Shown one piece after another: positions 48,643-54,489 of a stretch of 64,000 nucleotides of DNA. The notes under the pieces were generated by a model. It searched no databases. It had not been told where the DNA came from and was given only the letters and a program-made list of their open reading frames with translations. Source of the DNA: Isosphaera sp. Its GTDB lineage: Bacteria > Planctomycetota > Planctomycetia > Gemmatales > Gemmataceae. The stretch lies in contig PNKH01000006.1 in assembly GCA_013822345.1 (NCBI GenBank), positions 1 through 64,000 of the forward strand, written 5' to 3'. Positions within the stretch are counted from its first letter, which is position 1. Every line of letters starts with the position of its first letter. Both the position numbers and the translations under genes were made by a program.

Positions 48643-48720
48643 CCCCCGGTTAGCGACGCGTCGCCGACGCGTTCCGCGCCGCATCGCGGACGCGTCTGCG
48701 ACGCGTCGCTAACCGGGGGT
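48643..48720. terminator. Palindrome between convergent genes
   Basis: CCCCGGTTAGCGACGCGTCG and complement form a long stem that fills the space between the DUF1501 stop and the stop of the TIGR03000 gene, touching both. This is a bidirectional terminator by position. Confidence 0.7.
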
Positions 48721-49529
48721 CACTTCCCCGCCGCCACCTCCGGCGCGGTGAAGTCGACCCGCACCACCTCCCCGGGGGTGCCGGTCGCCCACCGCCGCGC
48801 CTCCCGCACCGCCCCGCCCTCCACCCACCGGGCCGTCACCTCGTACCGGAACTCCTTCCCCGCCTCCAGCACCGGCGACTCGAACACCCGGTCCGTCCCG
48901 GTCTGGGCCGTCCGCACCCCGTCCACGAACACCTCCGCGGCCGGCTGCGGCACCCGCACCGACAGCACCAGGCACCCGCCCGGGGCCGCCGGCGCCGCGG
49001 CCGCCGGGAACGGCGGCCGGCCCACCCCCTCCGGGGTCGGCCAGACGTTCACGGTCAGCGGCCGCGGCCGCGGGGACGCGGCGTAGATCCCGACCCACCC
49101 GAACGGCAGGCCCGGGGCCGGGAAGTCGTAGTACCGCCGGACCAGGTCGGAGTTCCCGAACACCCCGGGGACCGGGCCGTACGTCGGCACCGGCGGGCCG
49201 TACAGGCTCAGCCCGTTCGACCAGAACTGCCCGACCCGACCGCCGAACCCGAACAGGAACGGGTACCCGAGCGGATACCCGACGTACGGCCCGCCGGCCA
49301 GCCCGTAGTACCCCCACGGGGCGGCCACCCGCGGCCCGTACGGCCACCCGGAGTGGTAGAACCCCGGGCCGTAGGCCGGGCCTGCGAACGCCCCGACCTC
49401 GGCCCGCGGCCCGGTCAGCACGGTCCCGCCGCCGAACGGGCTGGGGTACGGCGGGTAGTCCTGGGCGGACCCGGCGGAAGGGAGGAGCAGGGCGGCGGAC
49501 AGGGCGAGCGACCGGACACGGTGCGGCAC
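48720..49529 (-). CDS. TIGR03000-domain secreted protein
   Basis: GTG at 49529 gives a 269-residue protein with a signal peptide (VRSLALSAALLLPSAGSAQ). A Gly/Tyr/Pro-rich segment follows, with GYYGLAGGPYVGYPLGYP. A C-terminal beta domain of TIGR03000 type closes the protein: VPQPAAEVFVDGVRTAQTGT, RVFESPVLEAGKEFRYEVTA. This domain is nearly restricted to planctomycetes and is thought to be an extracellular module. The start has only a weak GGGG ribosome site. Confidence 0.8.
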   Translation of the reverse strand: MPHRVRSLALSAALLLPSAGSAQDYPPYPSPFGGGTVLTGPRAEVGAFAGPAYGPGFYHSGWPYGPRVAAPWGYYGLAGGPYVGYPLGYPFLFGFGGRVGQFWSNGLSLYGPPVPTYGPVPGVFGNSDLVRRYYDFPAPGLPFGWVGIYAASPRPRPLTVNVWPTPEGVGRPPFPAAAAPAAPGGCLVLSVRVPQPAAEVFVDGVRTAQTGTDRVFESPVLEAGKEFRYEVTARWVEGGAVREARRWATGTPGEVVRVDFTAPEVAAGK

Positions 49530-49635: not shown

Positions 49636-52600
49636 TCACGGCGCCGGCGACACAACCGGGATCACCCCGCGGACCGCCCCGACCCGGCCGTCGAGGGTGT
49701 GCCCGGCGACGATCACCTGGTACCCGCCGGGGGCGTTGCCGAGGTGGAACCGGAGCGTCGCCTTGCCGTCGGCCGGGAGGACGACCACCGGCTGCCACAG
49801 GACGGTGTCGCCGGGGTCGGCCGCCCGGCCGTCGGCCCCGGGCCGCGGGGCGGCGTACTCGCGGACGACCAGCGGCGGCACCTCGGGGACGGCGTTCTGG
49901 ACGCGGAAGAAGGCCGCCGCCTCGGGCGACGGGCGGTCGAACGGGGCCGGGGGCGGCGCCGCGGCGGCCACCCCGCCCCGCGCCAGCGCGGTCGCCATCT
50001 GGCTGCGGACCACGTTCGCCTTGTCGGCCGCGTAGCTCTTCGCCTGGTCCATCGCCCGCAGCAGCTCGACGGCCTTGGACTCCGCCCGGGCGTCGCCCCG
50101 GGCCAGGAGGGCTTCCGGCCCCTTCCGGTCGCCCGCCGCCCGGTCCGTCTCGGGCCGGGCCAGCAGGTCGGTCGGGATCTCCGACCGGCGGTGCGGCTCC
50201 CACCCGTACCCGCCGGGGAACTTCCCCCCGAACCCGGCGTCACCACCCTTTTTCCCGAGCCCGGGTGCGCCCGGGGGCCACGGCGGCGGCCGGACCTCCT
50301 TCTTCTCGCCCCGGCCCGGGACGATGTCCGGCGGGCCGCCGAAGTTGTTGTCCCGCCCCTTGCCGGTGGCGAGGGCCATTTCGACCGCGCCCGCCGGCGG
50401 CGGGACGACCGGCGCGGCGCGGCCGATCCGCGGCTCGGGGGCGACCGCGGCCCCGGCGGCCGGGGCCGCCTCCGGCGCCGCCACCCGGGCCGTGTCGCCG
50501 TCCGGGCGGGCGGCCTGGAGCCGGTCGGCCGTCCCCAGGGCGGCGACCAGGAAGGCGGCGAGCCCGGCCGCCCCGACGGTGCCGGCCCCGAGCGGGAACC
50601 GGGCGACCGGCCGGGCCACGGCCAGCCCGGCGAGCAGCCCGGCGAGCCCGGCCAGCCCGCCGACCGCGTACCACCCGGACGCCCGGAACCGGGCCACCGG
50701 CTCCGCCGCCGCGGCGGCCTCGACCGCCGCCGCGGCCGCGGCCGCGGCCGCCCGGTCCGCCGCCGCCCGCGGGGCGGACACGTCCCCGGGGCCGGCCGCC
50801 TTGGCGAGGTCGGCCTCGGCCTTCGCCGCCTGGTACGCCGCCGCCGCCGCGAGGTACTTCGGCAGGTGCTCGCCCCGCAGCCGCTCCTGCTCCCGCGCCC
50901 ACCCCGGCTCCGCCCACGCCAGCCGCTGGCCGTTCTCCAGCGCGAGGTTCGCCCGCTCCGGCGTGGCGACCACCGGGTTCCGGGCGAACCCCTCCGGGGT
51001 CTGCTCCGCGAACCGCCGCCACCCCTGGGTGGCCAGCACCAGGTCGAGCGCCTCCGCCGCCTTCGGGTGGTCGGTCAGGAGGAAGTCGGCGTGCTCCAGC
51101 GCGTCCGGGGTGCTCACCTCCCCGGCCAGCAGGAAGTGGGTGGTCGGCAGCCGGTCGGTGCCCCCGGGGGCGTCCGCCGTGTTCACCACCCCGGCGTACA
51201 CCACCGCCGGGGTCGGGCTCCCCTTCTCGTCGGCCGCGGCGATGCCGAGCTCGACGGCCGCCCCCGGGGCGAACCCCGCCCCGGACTTCGCCCCGGTCGC
51301 GGTGTAGCTCAGGTTCAGCGTCTCGCCCGGCTTCCGGAACACCAGCCGCTCGGCGACCGGCTTCAGGTCCGCCGCCGGCTTCCCCGCACCCTCCTCCGGC
51401 TCCTCGAACACGGTCACCCGGACGACCCCGCCGCGCGGGTCGGTCCCGGCCATCAGCCGGACCTCGGTCAGCTGCCCGGCCGCGGCCGCCACCCGCCGGG
51501 TGTCGGACAGCCGGCCGCGGGTGTACGCCCCGACGACCAGGTTGCGGTCCTGCCCGACCGACCGGAGGTGGACCCGGACCGGCTGCCCCGGGGCGGTGAC
51601 CGGGTCCGGCACGGTGATCACCACCCCGTCGATCTTCACCTCCGGGAGCGGATACCCGGTCCGAACGGCGGCGGCCGCGGCCCCGGCGGCGGCCGCCGGG
51701 GCGGACGGGAACCGGCCGTCGGCGGACGCCAGCTTCAGCCACGCCGGGGCGCCGAGTTCCGGGGTGAAGGTGAAGGCCGCGATCCCCCGGTTCGCCCCGG
51801 GCGCCGCCGGGTCGGTCGGGGACTCGACCCGGGCCAACTCCCGCCGCCCGTCGGTCACCACCCCGCGGACGTCGACCGGGTGCCCGGCCGGGGTGGTGGC
51901 CCGGACGTACACCCGGCACGGCACCCCGGCCACCAGGTCCCCGCCCTCGGGGAAGAACTCGACCACGACGCTCCGGCCGACGACCGGGACCGGGGCCGCC
52001 ACCGCCTCCTCGACCACCCGCTTGCCGCTCGCCGCCCGGAACGTGGCCATCACCCGGACGTCCGCCTTGTCCAGGTCGGCCGGCAGGGTGAACCGGAACA
52101 CCGCCTTCCCGTCCGCCCCGGTGACCGGATCGCCGACCGGGGACACGGCGAGGACCCGGCCGTCGGCCACGGCCACCGCCGCCACCTCGGCCCCGGCGAC
52201 CGGGTCGTCCCCGAGCCGGAGCCGGGCCCGGGCCTCGACCGTGTCCCCGGGGGCGTACGACGCGGCCCCGTACACCAACTCCTTGCGGAACGCCTCGGCC
52301 GCCCCGGACCGGACCTTCACCGTCCGGGTGACCGGGACCGGGACGGCCGGCTGGGCCCCGGGCCGCGGCTGCTCCCGGAGGACGAGGGTGTAGTCCCCGT
52401 CGGGGGCGTCGGGCGGCAGGGCGAACGCCCCGCACCCGACCCCGCGGACCGGGCCCCCGCCCGGCCCGGGGACCGGCTCGACCCCCCCGCCGCCGACCCG
52501 CACCAGGTCGGTCGACCCGGCGACGGCCGGGACCGCCCGGACCGGGTGCCCGCCGGGGCCGCGGAGCTCGAACTGGAGCACCTGCTCCCGGGCCGGCGGG

Positions 52601-53634
52601 GTGAGGGTGACCCGGTCCAGGGTGAGGGACCGGAAGTACACCGTCTCGCCGGGCCGGTAGGCCGCCTTGTCGGTGGTCAGGGCGGTGGCGTACACCGGGC
52701 CGAGGAGCCGGACCCGGTCCGGCAGGTCGAACTTCTCCCCGGTCACCCGGTCCTCCCGGGTGACGACCAGGTACAGCTCCGACTCCGGGGTGAGCTTGCC
52801 CCACGCGGCCGCCGGCAGGCGGACGGTGTGCTCCCGGGCCCGGCCCGGGTCGATCGGCTGGGAGTGGACGACGGCGTCGGTCTGGTCCCGGACCTCGGCC
52901 AGCAGCCGGCCGGGCGGGGCCGCCCCGGGGTCGCGGACGACCAGCAGGAACTCGTTCGGGGCCCCGGGCTGGACGGCGGCCGGCTTCCGCACCTCCCAGG
53001 TCACCCGCCGGGCCTCGAGGGCCTGGAGGGCGGCCTTCTCCTCGTCCACCCACCGGGCGAGGACCCCGTCGTGCTGCTGCTGGGCGGCGAGGAGCTTGAA
53101 CTGGGCGTCGGCCAGCGGGCGACCGGCCTCGGCGGTGGCGGAGTCGAGGGCGAGGCGGGCCTGGTCCGACCGGGCGGCGGTGTCGGCGGCGGCGGCCCGC
53201 GCGGCCTCGGCCCGGCTCAGCAGGTCGCGGACCGGGAGGACGGTGCCGGGGACGGCGACGAGGACGGCGGCGGCGACGGCCCACGGGAGCCACCGGGCGA
53301 CGGCGGCCGACCGGCCGCCCGGCGCGGGGCGGCGGGCGGGCTCGGCGGCCCGGTCGCCGGGCGCCGGGAACGGGACGACGGCCGCCCGGCGGGCCGGGGC
53401 GGCGGGGGCGGGGGCGGTCTTGGGCCGGGCGGCCGGGGCCTCGAACCGGACGGCCGGGAAGGTGCCGCGGGCGGCGGCGGCGATCAGCCCCTGGACGCGG
53501 GCGGCCTCGTCCCGGGCGGCGGCGCACGCCGGGCAACCGGCGAGGTGCGCGGCGACGGCGGCCTCTTCGGGGGCGTCGAGCAGCCCGTAGAGGTGGTCGG
53601 GGATCAGGGGCCGGCAGGCGTCGCACGACGGCAT
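49636..53634 (-). CDS. Anti-sigma zinc finger fused to MG2/alpha-2-macroglobulin-like protein
   Basis: The ATG at 53634 gives 1332 residues. The N-terminus is an anti-sigma zinc finger with H30-x3-C34-x2-C37. A single membrane helix follows (about 114-135, LPWAVAAAVLVAVPGTVLPV). The large exterior has MG2-type domains (DKAAYRPGETVYFRSLTLD, SYAPGDTVEARARLRLGDDP, VVVEFFPEGGDLVAGVPCRV) and a conserved DLVLATQGWRRF. Two more hydrophobic stretches lie around residues 980-1035. It follows the ECF sigma gene by 53 bases, so it is its probable membrane regulator. A fused sensor of envelope state is inferred. Confidence 0.82.
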   Translation of the reverse strand: MPSCDACRPLIPDHLYGLLDAPEEAAVAAHLAGCPACAAARDEAARVQGLIAAAARGTFPAVRFEAPAARPKTAPAPAAPARRAAVVPFPAPGDRAAEPARRPAPGGRSAAVARWLPWAVAAAVLVAVPGTVLPVRDLLSRAEAARAAAADTAARSDQARLALDSATAEAGRPLADAQFKLLAAQQQHDGVLARWVDEEKAALQALEARRVTWEVRKPAAVQPGAPNEFLLVVRDPGAAPPGRLLAEVRDQTDAVVHSQPIDPGRAREHTVRLPAAAWGKLTPESELYLVVTREDRVTGEKFDLPDRVRLLGPVYATALTTDKAAYRPGETVYFRSLTLDRVTLTPPAREQVLQFELRGPGGHPVRAVPAVAGSTDLVRVGGGGVEPVPGPGGGPVRGVGCGAFALPPDAPDGDYTLVLREQPRPGAQPAVPVPVTRTVKVRSGAAEAFRKELVYGAASYAPGDTVEARARLRLGDDPVAGAEVAAVAVADGRVLAVSPVGDPVTGADGKAVFRFTLPADLDKADVRVMATFRAASGKRVVEEAVAAPVPVVGRSVVVEFFPEGGDLVAGVPCRVYVRATTPAGHPVDVRGVVTDGRRELARVESPTDPAAPGANRGIAAFTFTPELGAPAWLKLASADGRFPSAPAAAAGAAAAAVRTGYPLPEVKIDGVVITVPDPVTAPGQPVRVHLRSVGQDRNLVVGAYTRGRLSDTRRVAAAAGQLTEVRLMAGTDPRGGVVRVTVFEEPEEGAGKPAADLKPVAERLVFRKPGETLNLSYTATGAKSGAGFAPGAAVELGIAAADEKGSPTPAVVYAGVVNTADAPGGTDRLPTTHFLLAGEVSTPDALEHADFLLTDHPKAAEALDLVLATQGWRRFAEQTPEGFARNPVVATPERANLALENGQRLAWAEPGWAREQERLRGEHLPKYLAAAAAYQAAKAEADLAKAAGPGDVSAPRAAADRAAAAAAAAAVEAAAAAEPVARFRASGWYAVGGLAGLAGLLAGLAVARPVARFPLGAGTVGAAGLAAFLVAALGTADRLQAARPDGDTARVAAPEAAPAAGAAVAPEPRIGRAAPVVPPPAGAVEMALATGKGRDNNFGGPPDIVPGRGEKKEVRPPPWPPGAPGLGKKGGDAGFGGKFPGGYGWEPHRRSEIPTDLLARPETDRAAGDRKGPEALLARGDARAESKAVELLRAMDQAKSYAADKANVVRSQMATALARGGVAAAAPPPAPFDRPSPEAAAFFRVQNAVPEVPPLVVREYAAPRPGADGRAADPGDTVLWQPVVVLPADGKATLRFHLGNAPGGYQVIVAGHTLDGRVGAVRGVIPVVSPAP

Positions 53635-53687: not shown

Positions 53688-54278
53688 CTACGACTCGTCA
53701 CCCCCGCCCGGGTTCAGCACCTTCCGGAGCTTGATCAGGGCGGTCCGCATCTGGGTCTTCACGGTCCCGACCGGGGCGCTGCGGATCTCGGCGATCTGCT
53801 CGTACGTCAGCTCGCCATTCTGGCGGAGGAGGAACACCTCCTTCTCCTCCTGGCGGAGGCCGCCGATCGCGACCCGGAGCCGGTCGAGGACTTCCTGGTC
53901 CTCGACCGCCCGCCCCGCCGCGTCGTCCCGGCACGGCACCATCACGTCGTCCTCCGGGAGCGGCCGGGCCTTCCGGTGCCACGCGCTCCGCTGGAAGTCC
54001 TTGGCGGCGTTCAGCCCGACCCGGAAGATCCAGGCCCGCAGGTTCTGCACCTCGCCGATGGTGGCCCGGGCCCGCCAGCACTTCAGGAACGCCTCCTGGG
54101 CCGCGTCCTGGGCGTCGTCCGGGTTGCCGAGGAGGTACAGCAGGGTGCTGACCAGCTCGTCCCGGACCTGGTTGAACAGGGCGACCAGGGCGTCGTCCGC
54201 GGGGCAACGGCGGTCCAGGGCGCCGGGTTCGGGGGTCGGGGGCGGCCGCTCGGTCGGGGTCGCGCCGGGCTTCGCCAT
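53688..54278 (-). CDS. ECF-family RNA polymerase sigma factor
   Basis: The 196-residue protein has region 2 (LYLLGNPDDAQDAAQEAFLK, with AWIFRVGLNAAKDF) and region 4 (LRQEEKEVFLLRQNGELTYE, with APVGTVKTQMRTALIKLRK). That is the complete ECF layout, without region 3. It recruits RNA polymerase to promoters that cannot be named here. The next gene downstream encodes a zinc-finger anti-sigma fused to an extracytoplasmic domain, so the pair is a sigma/anti-sigma unit. Confidence 0.93.
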   Translation of the reverse strand: MAKPGATPTERPPPTPEPGALDRRCPADDALVALFNQVRDELVSTLLYLLGNPDDAQDAAQEAFLKCWRARATIGEVQNLRAWIFRVGLNAAKDFQRSAWHRKARPLPEDDVMVPCRDDAAGRAVEDQEVLDRLRVAIGGLRQEEKEVFLLRQNGELTYEQIAEIRSAPVGTVKTQMRTALIKLRKVLNPGGGDES

Positions 54279-54489
54279 AGCGTCCTACCTGCACGACGGC
54301 GGACGGGCCGGGGCGGATTGGGGAAATCCGCGCCGGCCGCGGGTCAGGCGATCAGGCCGCACAACCCTGCCATGCTACCCGCGGCCCGGCGCGCGGGGCA
54401 AGGGGACAAACGAACCGGGCCGCGGGTCACCCCGCGGCCCGGCCACTTCGGAATGTCCACTTCTCGACCTGGCACGCGGAGGGCTCGCG

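What the first reader, a model, noticed from the sequence alone, without database searches (positions are those of the whole stretch)
49636..53634. Anti-sigma zinc finger fused to a giant MG2 exterior
The N-terminal H-x3-C-x2-C finger, one membrane helix and about 1200 residues of MG2-like domains lie right after an ECF sigma gene. Anti-sigma factors usually have small exteriors. Macroglobulin-like domains trap proteases or sense envelope damage, so the fusion suggests a direct sensor that would free the sigma factor.
Basis: partly seen in the sequence, partly recalled or inferred. Interest (0 to 1): 0.66.

Follow-up and report, generated by a model that had tools for sequence, protein, structure and literature searches.

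The report
Anti-sigma factor with macroglobulin sensor domain
A planctomycete bacterium carries a membrane protein whose inner end looks like a lock on a gene-switch protein (a sigma factor) and whose large outer part is built like the protease-trapping alpha-2-macroglobulin and complement proteins of animals; the pair is conserved in nearly every sampled genome of its family and appears to control a small set of exported proteins, which suggests a new way for bacteria to sense attack or damage at their surface.

Summary
The fusion is real. Window 49636-53634 (-) encodes 1332 aa: zinc anti-sigma domain (aa 1-58), a membrane helix, then a macroglobulin exterior, 53 nt downstream of an ECF sigma gene. 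Three corrections: (1) The exterior is the first six domains (MG1-MG6) of an alpha-2-macroglobulin (A2M)/complement-C3 ring, not a row of MG2 domains. (2) Three membrane helices are predicted: a hairpin plus a disordered stretch sits inside MG6, where A2M has its protease bait. (3) Most relatives are complete A2Ms with the thioester domain (GCFEQ); the window's clade lost it at the MG6/MG7 boundary. The architecture occurs in 60 of 61 sampled genomes of the family; all 57 distinct anti-sigma-bearing proteins have an ECF sigma gene immediately upstream. In one branch the anti-sigma domain was replaced by another, and the sigma type changed with it. A promoter CAATC-N17-CGTC precedes the sigma gene in 38 of 50 loci (shuffles: at most 5) and also genes for exported proteins here and in relatives. 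Best reading: an A2M-derived extracytoplasmic sensor controlling an ECF sigma; cleavage or disturbance of the bait insert as trigger is inferred. No paper in the held library describes it.

The parts
54295..54320 (-). predicted ECF promoter of the sigma/anti-sigma operon: -35 CAATC (54316-54320), 17 nt, -10 CGTC (54295-54298)
   Evidence: exact match; same motif in 38/50 homologous loci, shuffles at most 5
53688..54278 (-). ECF sigma factor gene, 196 aa
   Evidence: Pfam Sigma70_r2 E 9e-13, Sigma70_r4_2 E 3e-10; TIGR02937
49636..53634 (-). anti-sigma / macroglobulin fusion gene, 1332 aa plus stop
   Evidence: ORF, zf-HC2 and MG2, homologues
53461..53634 (-). cytoplasmic anti-sigma domain aa 1-58, zinc motif C4, C7, H30-x3-C34-x2-C37
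   Evidence: zf-HC2; AlphaFold helices 4-15, 21-33, 35-58 with pLDDT 89-98; nearest PDB chains are anti-sigma domains but with weak E-values
53236..53292 (-). transmembrane helix 1, aa ~115-133
   Evidence: hydropathy; helix 110-127
50971..53013 (-). MG1 to first half of MG6 (aa ~208-888); Pfam MG2 at 52510-52680
   Evidence: AlphaFold model, VIA-align Z 19.7 to A2ML1, human A2M and C5b
49888..50970 (-). insert at the A2M bait / C3 beta-alpha' junction position (aa ~889-1249): helical stalk, membrane hairpin, disordered stretch
   Evidence: C3/C5 beta-chain matches stop at model 723 (aa 887) while MG6b resumes near model 1090; insert length compared
50536..50670 (-). transmembrane helices 2 and 3 (aa ~989-1007 and ~1015-1033)
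   Evidence: hydropathy, conserved across the clade
49639..49887 (-). second half of MG6, aa 1250-1332; homologous to the start of PF00207; protein ends at the MG6/MG7 boundary
   Evidence: family A2M profile 65 bits; structural match ends at A2M residue ~791
48720..49529 (-). downstream exported protein with TIGR03000 domain (start inferred, GTG about 49529), possible third gene of the operon
   Evidence: TIGR03000 E 3e-14; homologue found beside the fusion gene in the window's clade

Best explanation
The gene pair is a transmembrane signalling unit. The ECF sigma factor is held inactive at the membrane by the N-terminal anti-sigma domain of the fusion protein. The exterior is an A2M-derived ring (MG1-MG6) anchored at three places: one helix before MG1 and a helical hairpin inserted in MG6 at the bait position. 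Proteolysis, or another disturbance, of the long disordered bait insert changes or detaches the MG6 arm, much as bait cleavage rearranges A2M and convertase cleavage rearranges C3; this moves or exposes the membrane-proximal stalk, so that the anti-sigma domain is degraded (for example by regulated intramembrane proteolysis) or lets go. Freed sigma then transcribes its own operon and a small set of exported proteins from CAATC-N17-CGTC promoters. Supported here by sequence, model and comparison: architecture, pairing with sigma, promoter, part of the regulon. Inferred: inhibition of sigma, membrane topology, trigger, and release step.
For: zf-HC2 and MG2 above cut-off. 57/57 anti-sigma-bearing homologues have a sigma gene directly upstream. 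In clade B the zinc-type domain is replaced by another anti-sigma-like domain and the sigma is a different subfamily (TIGR02989 in the three tested by NCBIfam, same profile in 6/6); complete homologues that lost the domain (L055, L056, L059) have no recognised sigma gene upstream. Autoregulatory promoter in 38/50, including zinc-less members, and absent from the six clade-B sigma genes, an internal negative control. 17 sites in the genome against 3 for the reversed pattern; near-start sites precede genes for exported proteins; DUF3160, PSCyt1 and ~200-aa exported families carry the motif in both this genome and G043, and the last also in G016, G056 and G012. MG1-6 fold and bait-position insert. 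TED lost several times while anti-sigma domain and sigma were kept, so signalling does not need covalent trapping. M50 site-2-type protease genes in the genome (such genes are near universal). E. coli A2M changes shape on bait cleavage (PMC4498604).
Against: No binding, expression or cleavage data. The bait function of the insert is inferred from position and disorder only; the modelled stretch aa ~1042-1181 has pLDDT under 50. Membrane helices rest on hydropathy alone. Promoter sites found by a 9-base pattern include false ones, and in G043 many sites have no credible gene start. Most predicted targets have no known protective role. Foldseek support for the anti-sigma fold is weak (best E 0.58).
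Confidence: 0.6

Rival explanations
1. Same anti-sigma unit, but the MG ring senses without being cut: it binds an envelope ligand (misfolded exported protein, peptidoglycan or another cell-surface component) or reports mechanical strain, and the signal passes by conformational change. The bait insert is only a membrane anchor.
For: All proteins of this clade that reach the region keep a membrane hairpin at the bait position, which looks like an anchor; TED lost repeatedly; a Bacteroidota relative has another domain at that place (CarboxypepD_reg), so the site tolerates different inserts; targets are exported proteins without recognised protease inhibitors.
Against: The long disordered stretch after the hairpin is kept in the short forms and gives an obvious cleavage site; known activations of this fold family are mostly proteolytic at this position (general knowledge; PMC4498604 for E. 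coli A2M).
Confidence: 0.25
2. The macroglobulin is the effector and the anti-sigma domain is a gauge of its own consumption: when proteases spend the trap, sigma is freed and the operon makes more trap (self-replenishing suicide inhibitor).
For: Sigma and trap appear to share one autoregulated operon; most relatives keep a TED with GCFEQ thioester.
Against: Does not fit the window protein, which lacks the TED, nor the other short forms; the predicted targets include other exported proteins.
Confidence: 0.08
3. The N-terminal domain no longer inhibits sigma (vestigial, or a co-activator/localisation factor).
For: Zinc ligands lost in 8 of 51 type-A proteins; sequence of the domain diverges (29% mean column identity).
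Against: Core helix motif conserved (L18 invariant, L12/Y16/L19 over 90%); sigma gene always adjacent; zinc is dispensable in many class I anti-sigma factors (PMC7406223).
Confidence: 0.05

Closest known systems
Class I anti-sigma factors of the zinc type (ChrR, RsiW, RslA; zf-HC2 domain)
   Same: N-terminal helical domain with C..H-x3-C-x2-C, next gene to an ECF sigma, membrane helix behind it; zinc motif present or lost within one group, as reported in PMC7406223
   Different: exterior of ~1200 aa built as an A2M ring with an extra membrane hairpin
Bacterial alpha-2-macroglobulins (E. coli ECAM/YfhM, Salmonella SaA2M)
   Same: MG ring, bait position inside an MG domain; relatives of the window protein also have TED with CxEQ thioester
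   Different: ECAM and SaA2M have no anti-sigma domain and no hairpin in the bait position; window protein lacks MG7, CUB, TED and the C-terminal MG domain
Complement C3/C5 and human A2M/A2ML1/CD109
   Same: six-domain MG array; best structural matches, Z ~18-20
   Different: animal proteins without a cytoplasmic signalling part
RsgI-type anti-sigma factors of Clostridium thermocellum
   Same: anti-sigma factor with a large outer sensor domain; signal by regulated proteolysis (PMC12203970, abstract)
   Different: sense polysaccharide substrates; no macroglobulin part
Bacteroidota MG2/TED proteins (L087-L099)
   Same: homologous MG core (aa 319-876 of the window protein) and TED with GCFEQ
   Different: no anti-sigma domain, no membrane hairpin; CarboxypepD_reg domain in the member tested (L087)

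Membership tests
class I zinc anti-sigma factor | zinc-type anti-sigma domain (zf-HC2) at the N-terminus before a membrane helix | tested here: met
   Pfam PF13490 E 8e-8, above cut-off; C, H, C, C all present; hydrophobic helix aa 115-133
class I zinc anti-sigma factor | anti-sigma helical fold | tested here: inconclusive
   three confident helices; top Foldseek hits 4nqw, 3hug, 2q1z are anti-sigma domains but E 0.58-3.6
class I zinc anti-sigma factor | encoded next to its ECF sigma | tested here: met
   53 nt apart; 57/57 homologues
class I zinc anti-sigma factor | binds and inhibits the sigma factor | not testable with these tools
   needs an interaction and reporter experiment
alpha-2-macroglobulin family | MG domain ring MG1-MG6 | tested here: met
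   PF01835; model aligned to A2M, A2ML1, C5b at Z 19.7
alpha-2-macroglobulin family | bait region within MG6, cut by proteases | tested here: inconclusive
   insert at the right position and partly disordered; cleavage not testable
alpha-2-macroglobulin family | TED with CxEQ thioester | tested here: not met
   absent from the window protein and its clade; present in most long relatives. The protein is A2M-derived, not a thioester A2M
RsgI-type anti-sigma factor | RsgI N-terminal domain and carbohydrate-sensing exterior | tested here: not met
   Pfam and NCBIfam show zf-HC2 and MG2 only

The most novel reading that the evidence does not exclude
Bacterial protease sensor made from the complement/A2M machine: cutting the bait segment between the membrane hairpin and MG6b is the signal that frees an ECF sigma factor, so the fold used by animals to trap proteases or label targets is here a direct transcriptional switch, with trapping secondarily lost in some lineages.
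Probability: 0.4. Interest if true: 0.92.

Novelty: new variant of a known kind. Interest (0 to 1): 0.78.

Why it matters
What bacterial alpha-2-macroglobulins do outside enterobacteria is open, and what signals planctomycete ECF sigma factors is largely unknown. This links the two: a family-wide anti-sigma factor whose sensor is an A2M ring, with a defined promoter and candidate targets that make both questions directly testable. It also suggests that the bait-cleavage switch can be wired to transcription, and that trapping can be discarded while the sensor is kept.

Tried and rejected
Rejected: chance gene neighbourhood (57/57); unrelated string of MG2 repeats (one MG2 match, A2M-ring model); window protein truncated by a sequencing error (nine other closed short forms in the same clade end in the same domain, and the downstream frame holds a different conserved gene). 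Considered and not supported: that zinc is essential (8 of 51 lost it). Led nowhere: Pfam and PDB sequence search for the ~200-aa target family; promoter motif at the six clade-B sigma genes (none, which serves as control) and at most sigma genes outside the family (only L153 and L155 near-matches). Two genome searches failed by tool error. Hits labelled Bacteroidales (L100) and Kuenenia (L080) group inside Gemmataceae in the tree and are probably mis-binned contigs. Papers: no held paper combines macroglobulin, anti-sigma factor and planctomycetes; Jogler 2012 and Wiegand 2020 could not be read, so prior mention there is not excluded.

Full report
WHAT IS THERE. The ORF lies at 49636-53634 (-), 1332 aa from an ATG with an upstream GGGGAGAG ribosome-binding-like stretch. 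Pfam gives zf-HC2 at aa 4-38 and MG2 at aa 319-375, both above cut-off. The gene 53 nt upstream, 53688-54278 (-), is an ECF sigma factor. Hydropathy predicts three membrane helices, at aa ~115, ~989 and ~1015. The window is part of contig 6 of a 7.47-Mb, 95% complete genome whose relatives are Gemmataceae.

THE EXTERIOR IS AN ALPHA-2-MACROGLOBULIN RING. AlphaFold2 on aa 165-1332 with 52 aligned sequences gave mean pLDDT 78.8. Foldseek's best matches are complement C3/C5, CD109, TEP1 and A2M. VIA-align places model residues 54-1167 on A2ML1 32-790, human A2M 41-791 and C5b 31-824 with Z ~19.7, and parts of it on E. coli and Salmonella A2M with Z ~19. C3/C5 beta-chain fragments, which end in the first half of MG6, align to model 54-723 only; the second half of MG6 is at model ~1090-1161. 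The ~360 residues between (aa ~889-1249) therefore sit where A2M has its bait region and C3/C5 their activating junction. They contain a long helical stalk, the membrane hairpin, a stretch with pLDDT under 50 (aa ~1042-1181) and a further helix. The exact boundaries come from the model and are approximate.

THE WINDOW PROTEIN IS A SHORT FORM OF A LONGER FAMILY. Most homologues are ~1750-2100 aa and continue with PF00207 and a TED carrying GCFEQ. The window protein stops just before MG7. A maximum-likelihood tree of the MG core (79 rows) places it in a fully supported clade of 11 short forms nested among long forms; a second short clade (L113-L120) and two single rows (L074, L112) mean several separate losses, four label changes in the tree (the place of single long branches is uncertain).

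THE ANTI-SIGMA CONNECTION IS CONSERVED AND MODULAR. A homologue is present in 60 of 61 sampled genomes of the family, but only in 15 of 118 other genomes drawn from the phylum. Among distinct homologues with an anti-sigma domain, 57 of 57 have an ECF sigma gene directly upstream. H-x3-C-x2-C is kept in 43 of 51 type-A proteins; the others keep the LLDHLYGLL-like core. Within the zinc-less branch lies clade B, where the N-terminus is a different anti-sigma-like domain (assigned by resemblance; the only NCBIfam match is weak) and the upstream sigma is of the TIGR02989 type, in all six cases with zero gap. Close relatives with only a membrane helix (L055, L056, L059) have no recognised sigma gene upstream. 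Anti-sigma domain and sigma type thus change together. Outside the family, seven loci have the same layout with hairpin. In L162 a different zinc-finger-like N-terminus (H-x3-C-x2-C by eye; Pfam zf-HC2 weak in the similar L158, not significant in L162), a single membrane helix and a TED-bearing A2M follow a sigma gene by 18 nt, probably an independent fusion.

PROMOTER AND TARGETS. In 50 regions upstream of type-A sigma genes the gapped pattern CAATC-N17-CGTC occurs in 38, five more with one mismatch; the best pattern in shuffled sets reaches 4-5. In the window it is 54295-54320 (-), 16 nt before the sigma ATG. Clade-B sigma genes lack it. The genome has 17 matches against 3 for the reversed pattern; seven besides the sigma site lie 35-56 nt before starts of ORFs with a signal-peptide-like N-terminus: PSCyt1-WD40, DUF3160, WD40, VWA, two ~200-aa paralogues and one more. 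Orthologues of three of these carry the motif in G043. For the ~200-aa family, homologues in G016, G056 and G012 were found by protein similarity, not through the motif, and still have exact sites; of 30 loci 7 have zero and 7 one mismatch against 0.01 and 0.7 expected (tandem genes share some sites). For DUF3160 the motif is limited to this genome and G043, with one near-match in G039. Signal peptides were judged by eye. The gene after the fusion gene, a TIGR03000 exported protein, also has homologues beside the fusion gene in the window's clade.

MECHANISM. The evidence supports an anti-sigma unit whose sensor is an A2M ring. For the trigger I favour cleavage of the disordered bait insert, because known activations of this fold happen at this position and because E. 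coli A2M changes shape on bait cleavage (PMC4498604). The TED-less forms show that covalent capture is not needed. Release could go through intramembrane proteolysis; M50 protease genes exist but these are near universal, so this is weak. Ligand binding or mechanical sensing is the main rival.

NOVELTY. Zinc anti-sigma factors and bacterial A2Ms are known separately; zinc being dispensable is known (PMC7406223). No paper in the held library connects the two, though two key planctomycete papers were not held. I rate it a new variant of a known kind: a known class of regulator with a sensor not reported for it in the literature I could search, probably arising more than once.

Noticed in passing
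L167:1403-4336 (G000:C23): Another giant zf-HC2 protein in the same genome: 978 aa with DUF4349 and two hydrophobic segments; several other zf-HC2 proteins of the genome look like serine/threonine kinases.
   Followed up: partly
L162:2334-7613 (other planctomycete family): Sigma factor gene followed by a ZAS-like N-terminus fused to a complete thioester A2M without membrane hairpin: probably an independent origin of the same idea; L154 and L158 are similar.
   Followed up: partly
L196:251-883, L197:256-843, L212:348-1604: Family of ~200-aa exported proteins without Pfam or PDB match, preceded by the CAATC-N17-CGTC promoter in several genomes; a candidate effector of this pathway.
   Followed up: partly
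window 48650-48720: Strong inverted repeat (GGTTAGCGACGCGTCG ... CGACGCGTCGCTAACC) between the TIGR03000 gene and the convergent DUF1501 gene; looks like a bidirectional terminator or a small mobile repeat.
   Followed up: no
L055, L056, L059: Relatives that lost the anti-sigma domain yet keep the membrane hairpin and thioester domain: free-standing membrane A2Ms that appear derived from anti-sigma factors.
   Followed up: partly
L129 (G000:C65:43690-43950): A second, more distant MG2-containing frame (1736 aa) in the same genome, near a contig end.
   Followed up: no
L125 and (G024:C13): In one genome the anti-sigma part and the macroglobulin part lie in separate reading frames; natural split or frameshift not settled.
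   Followed up: no
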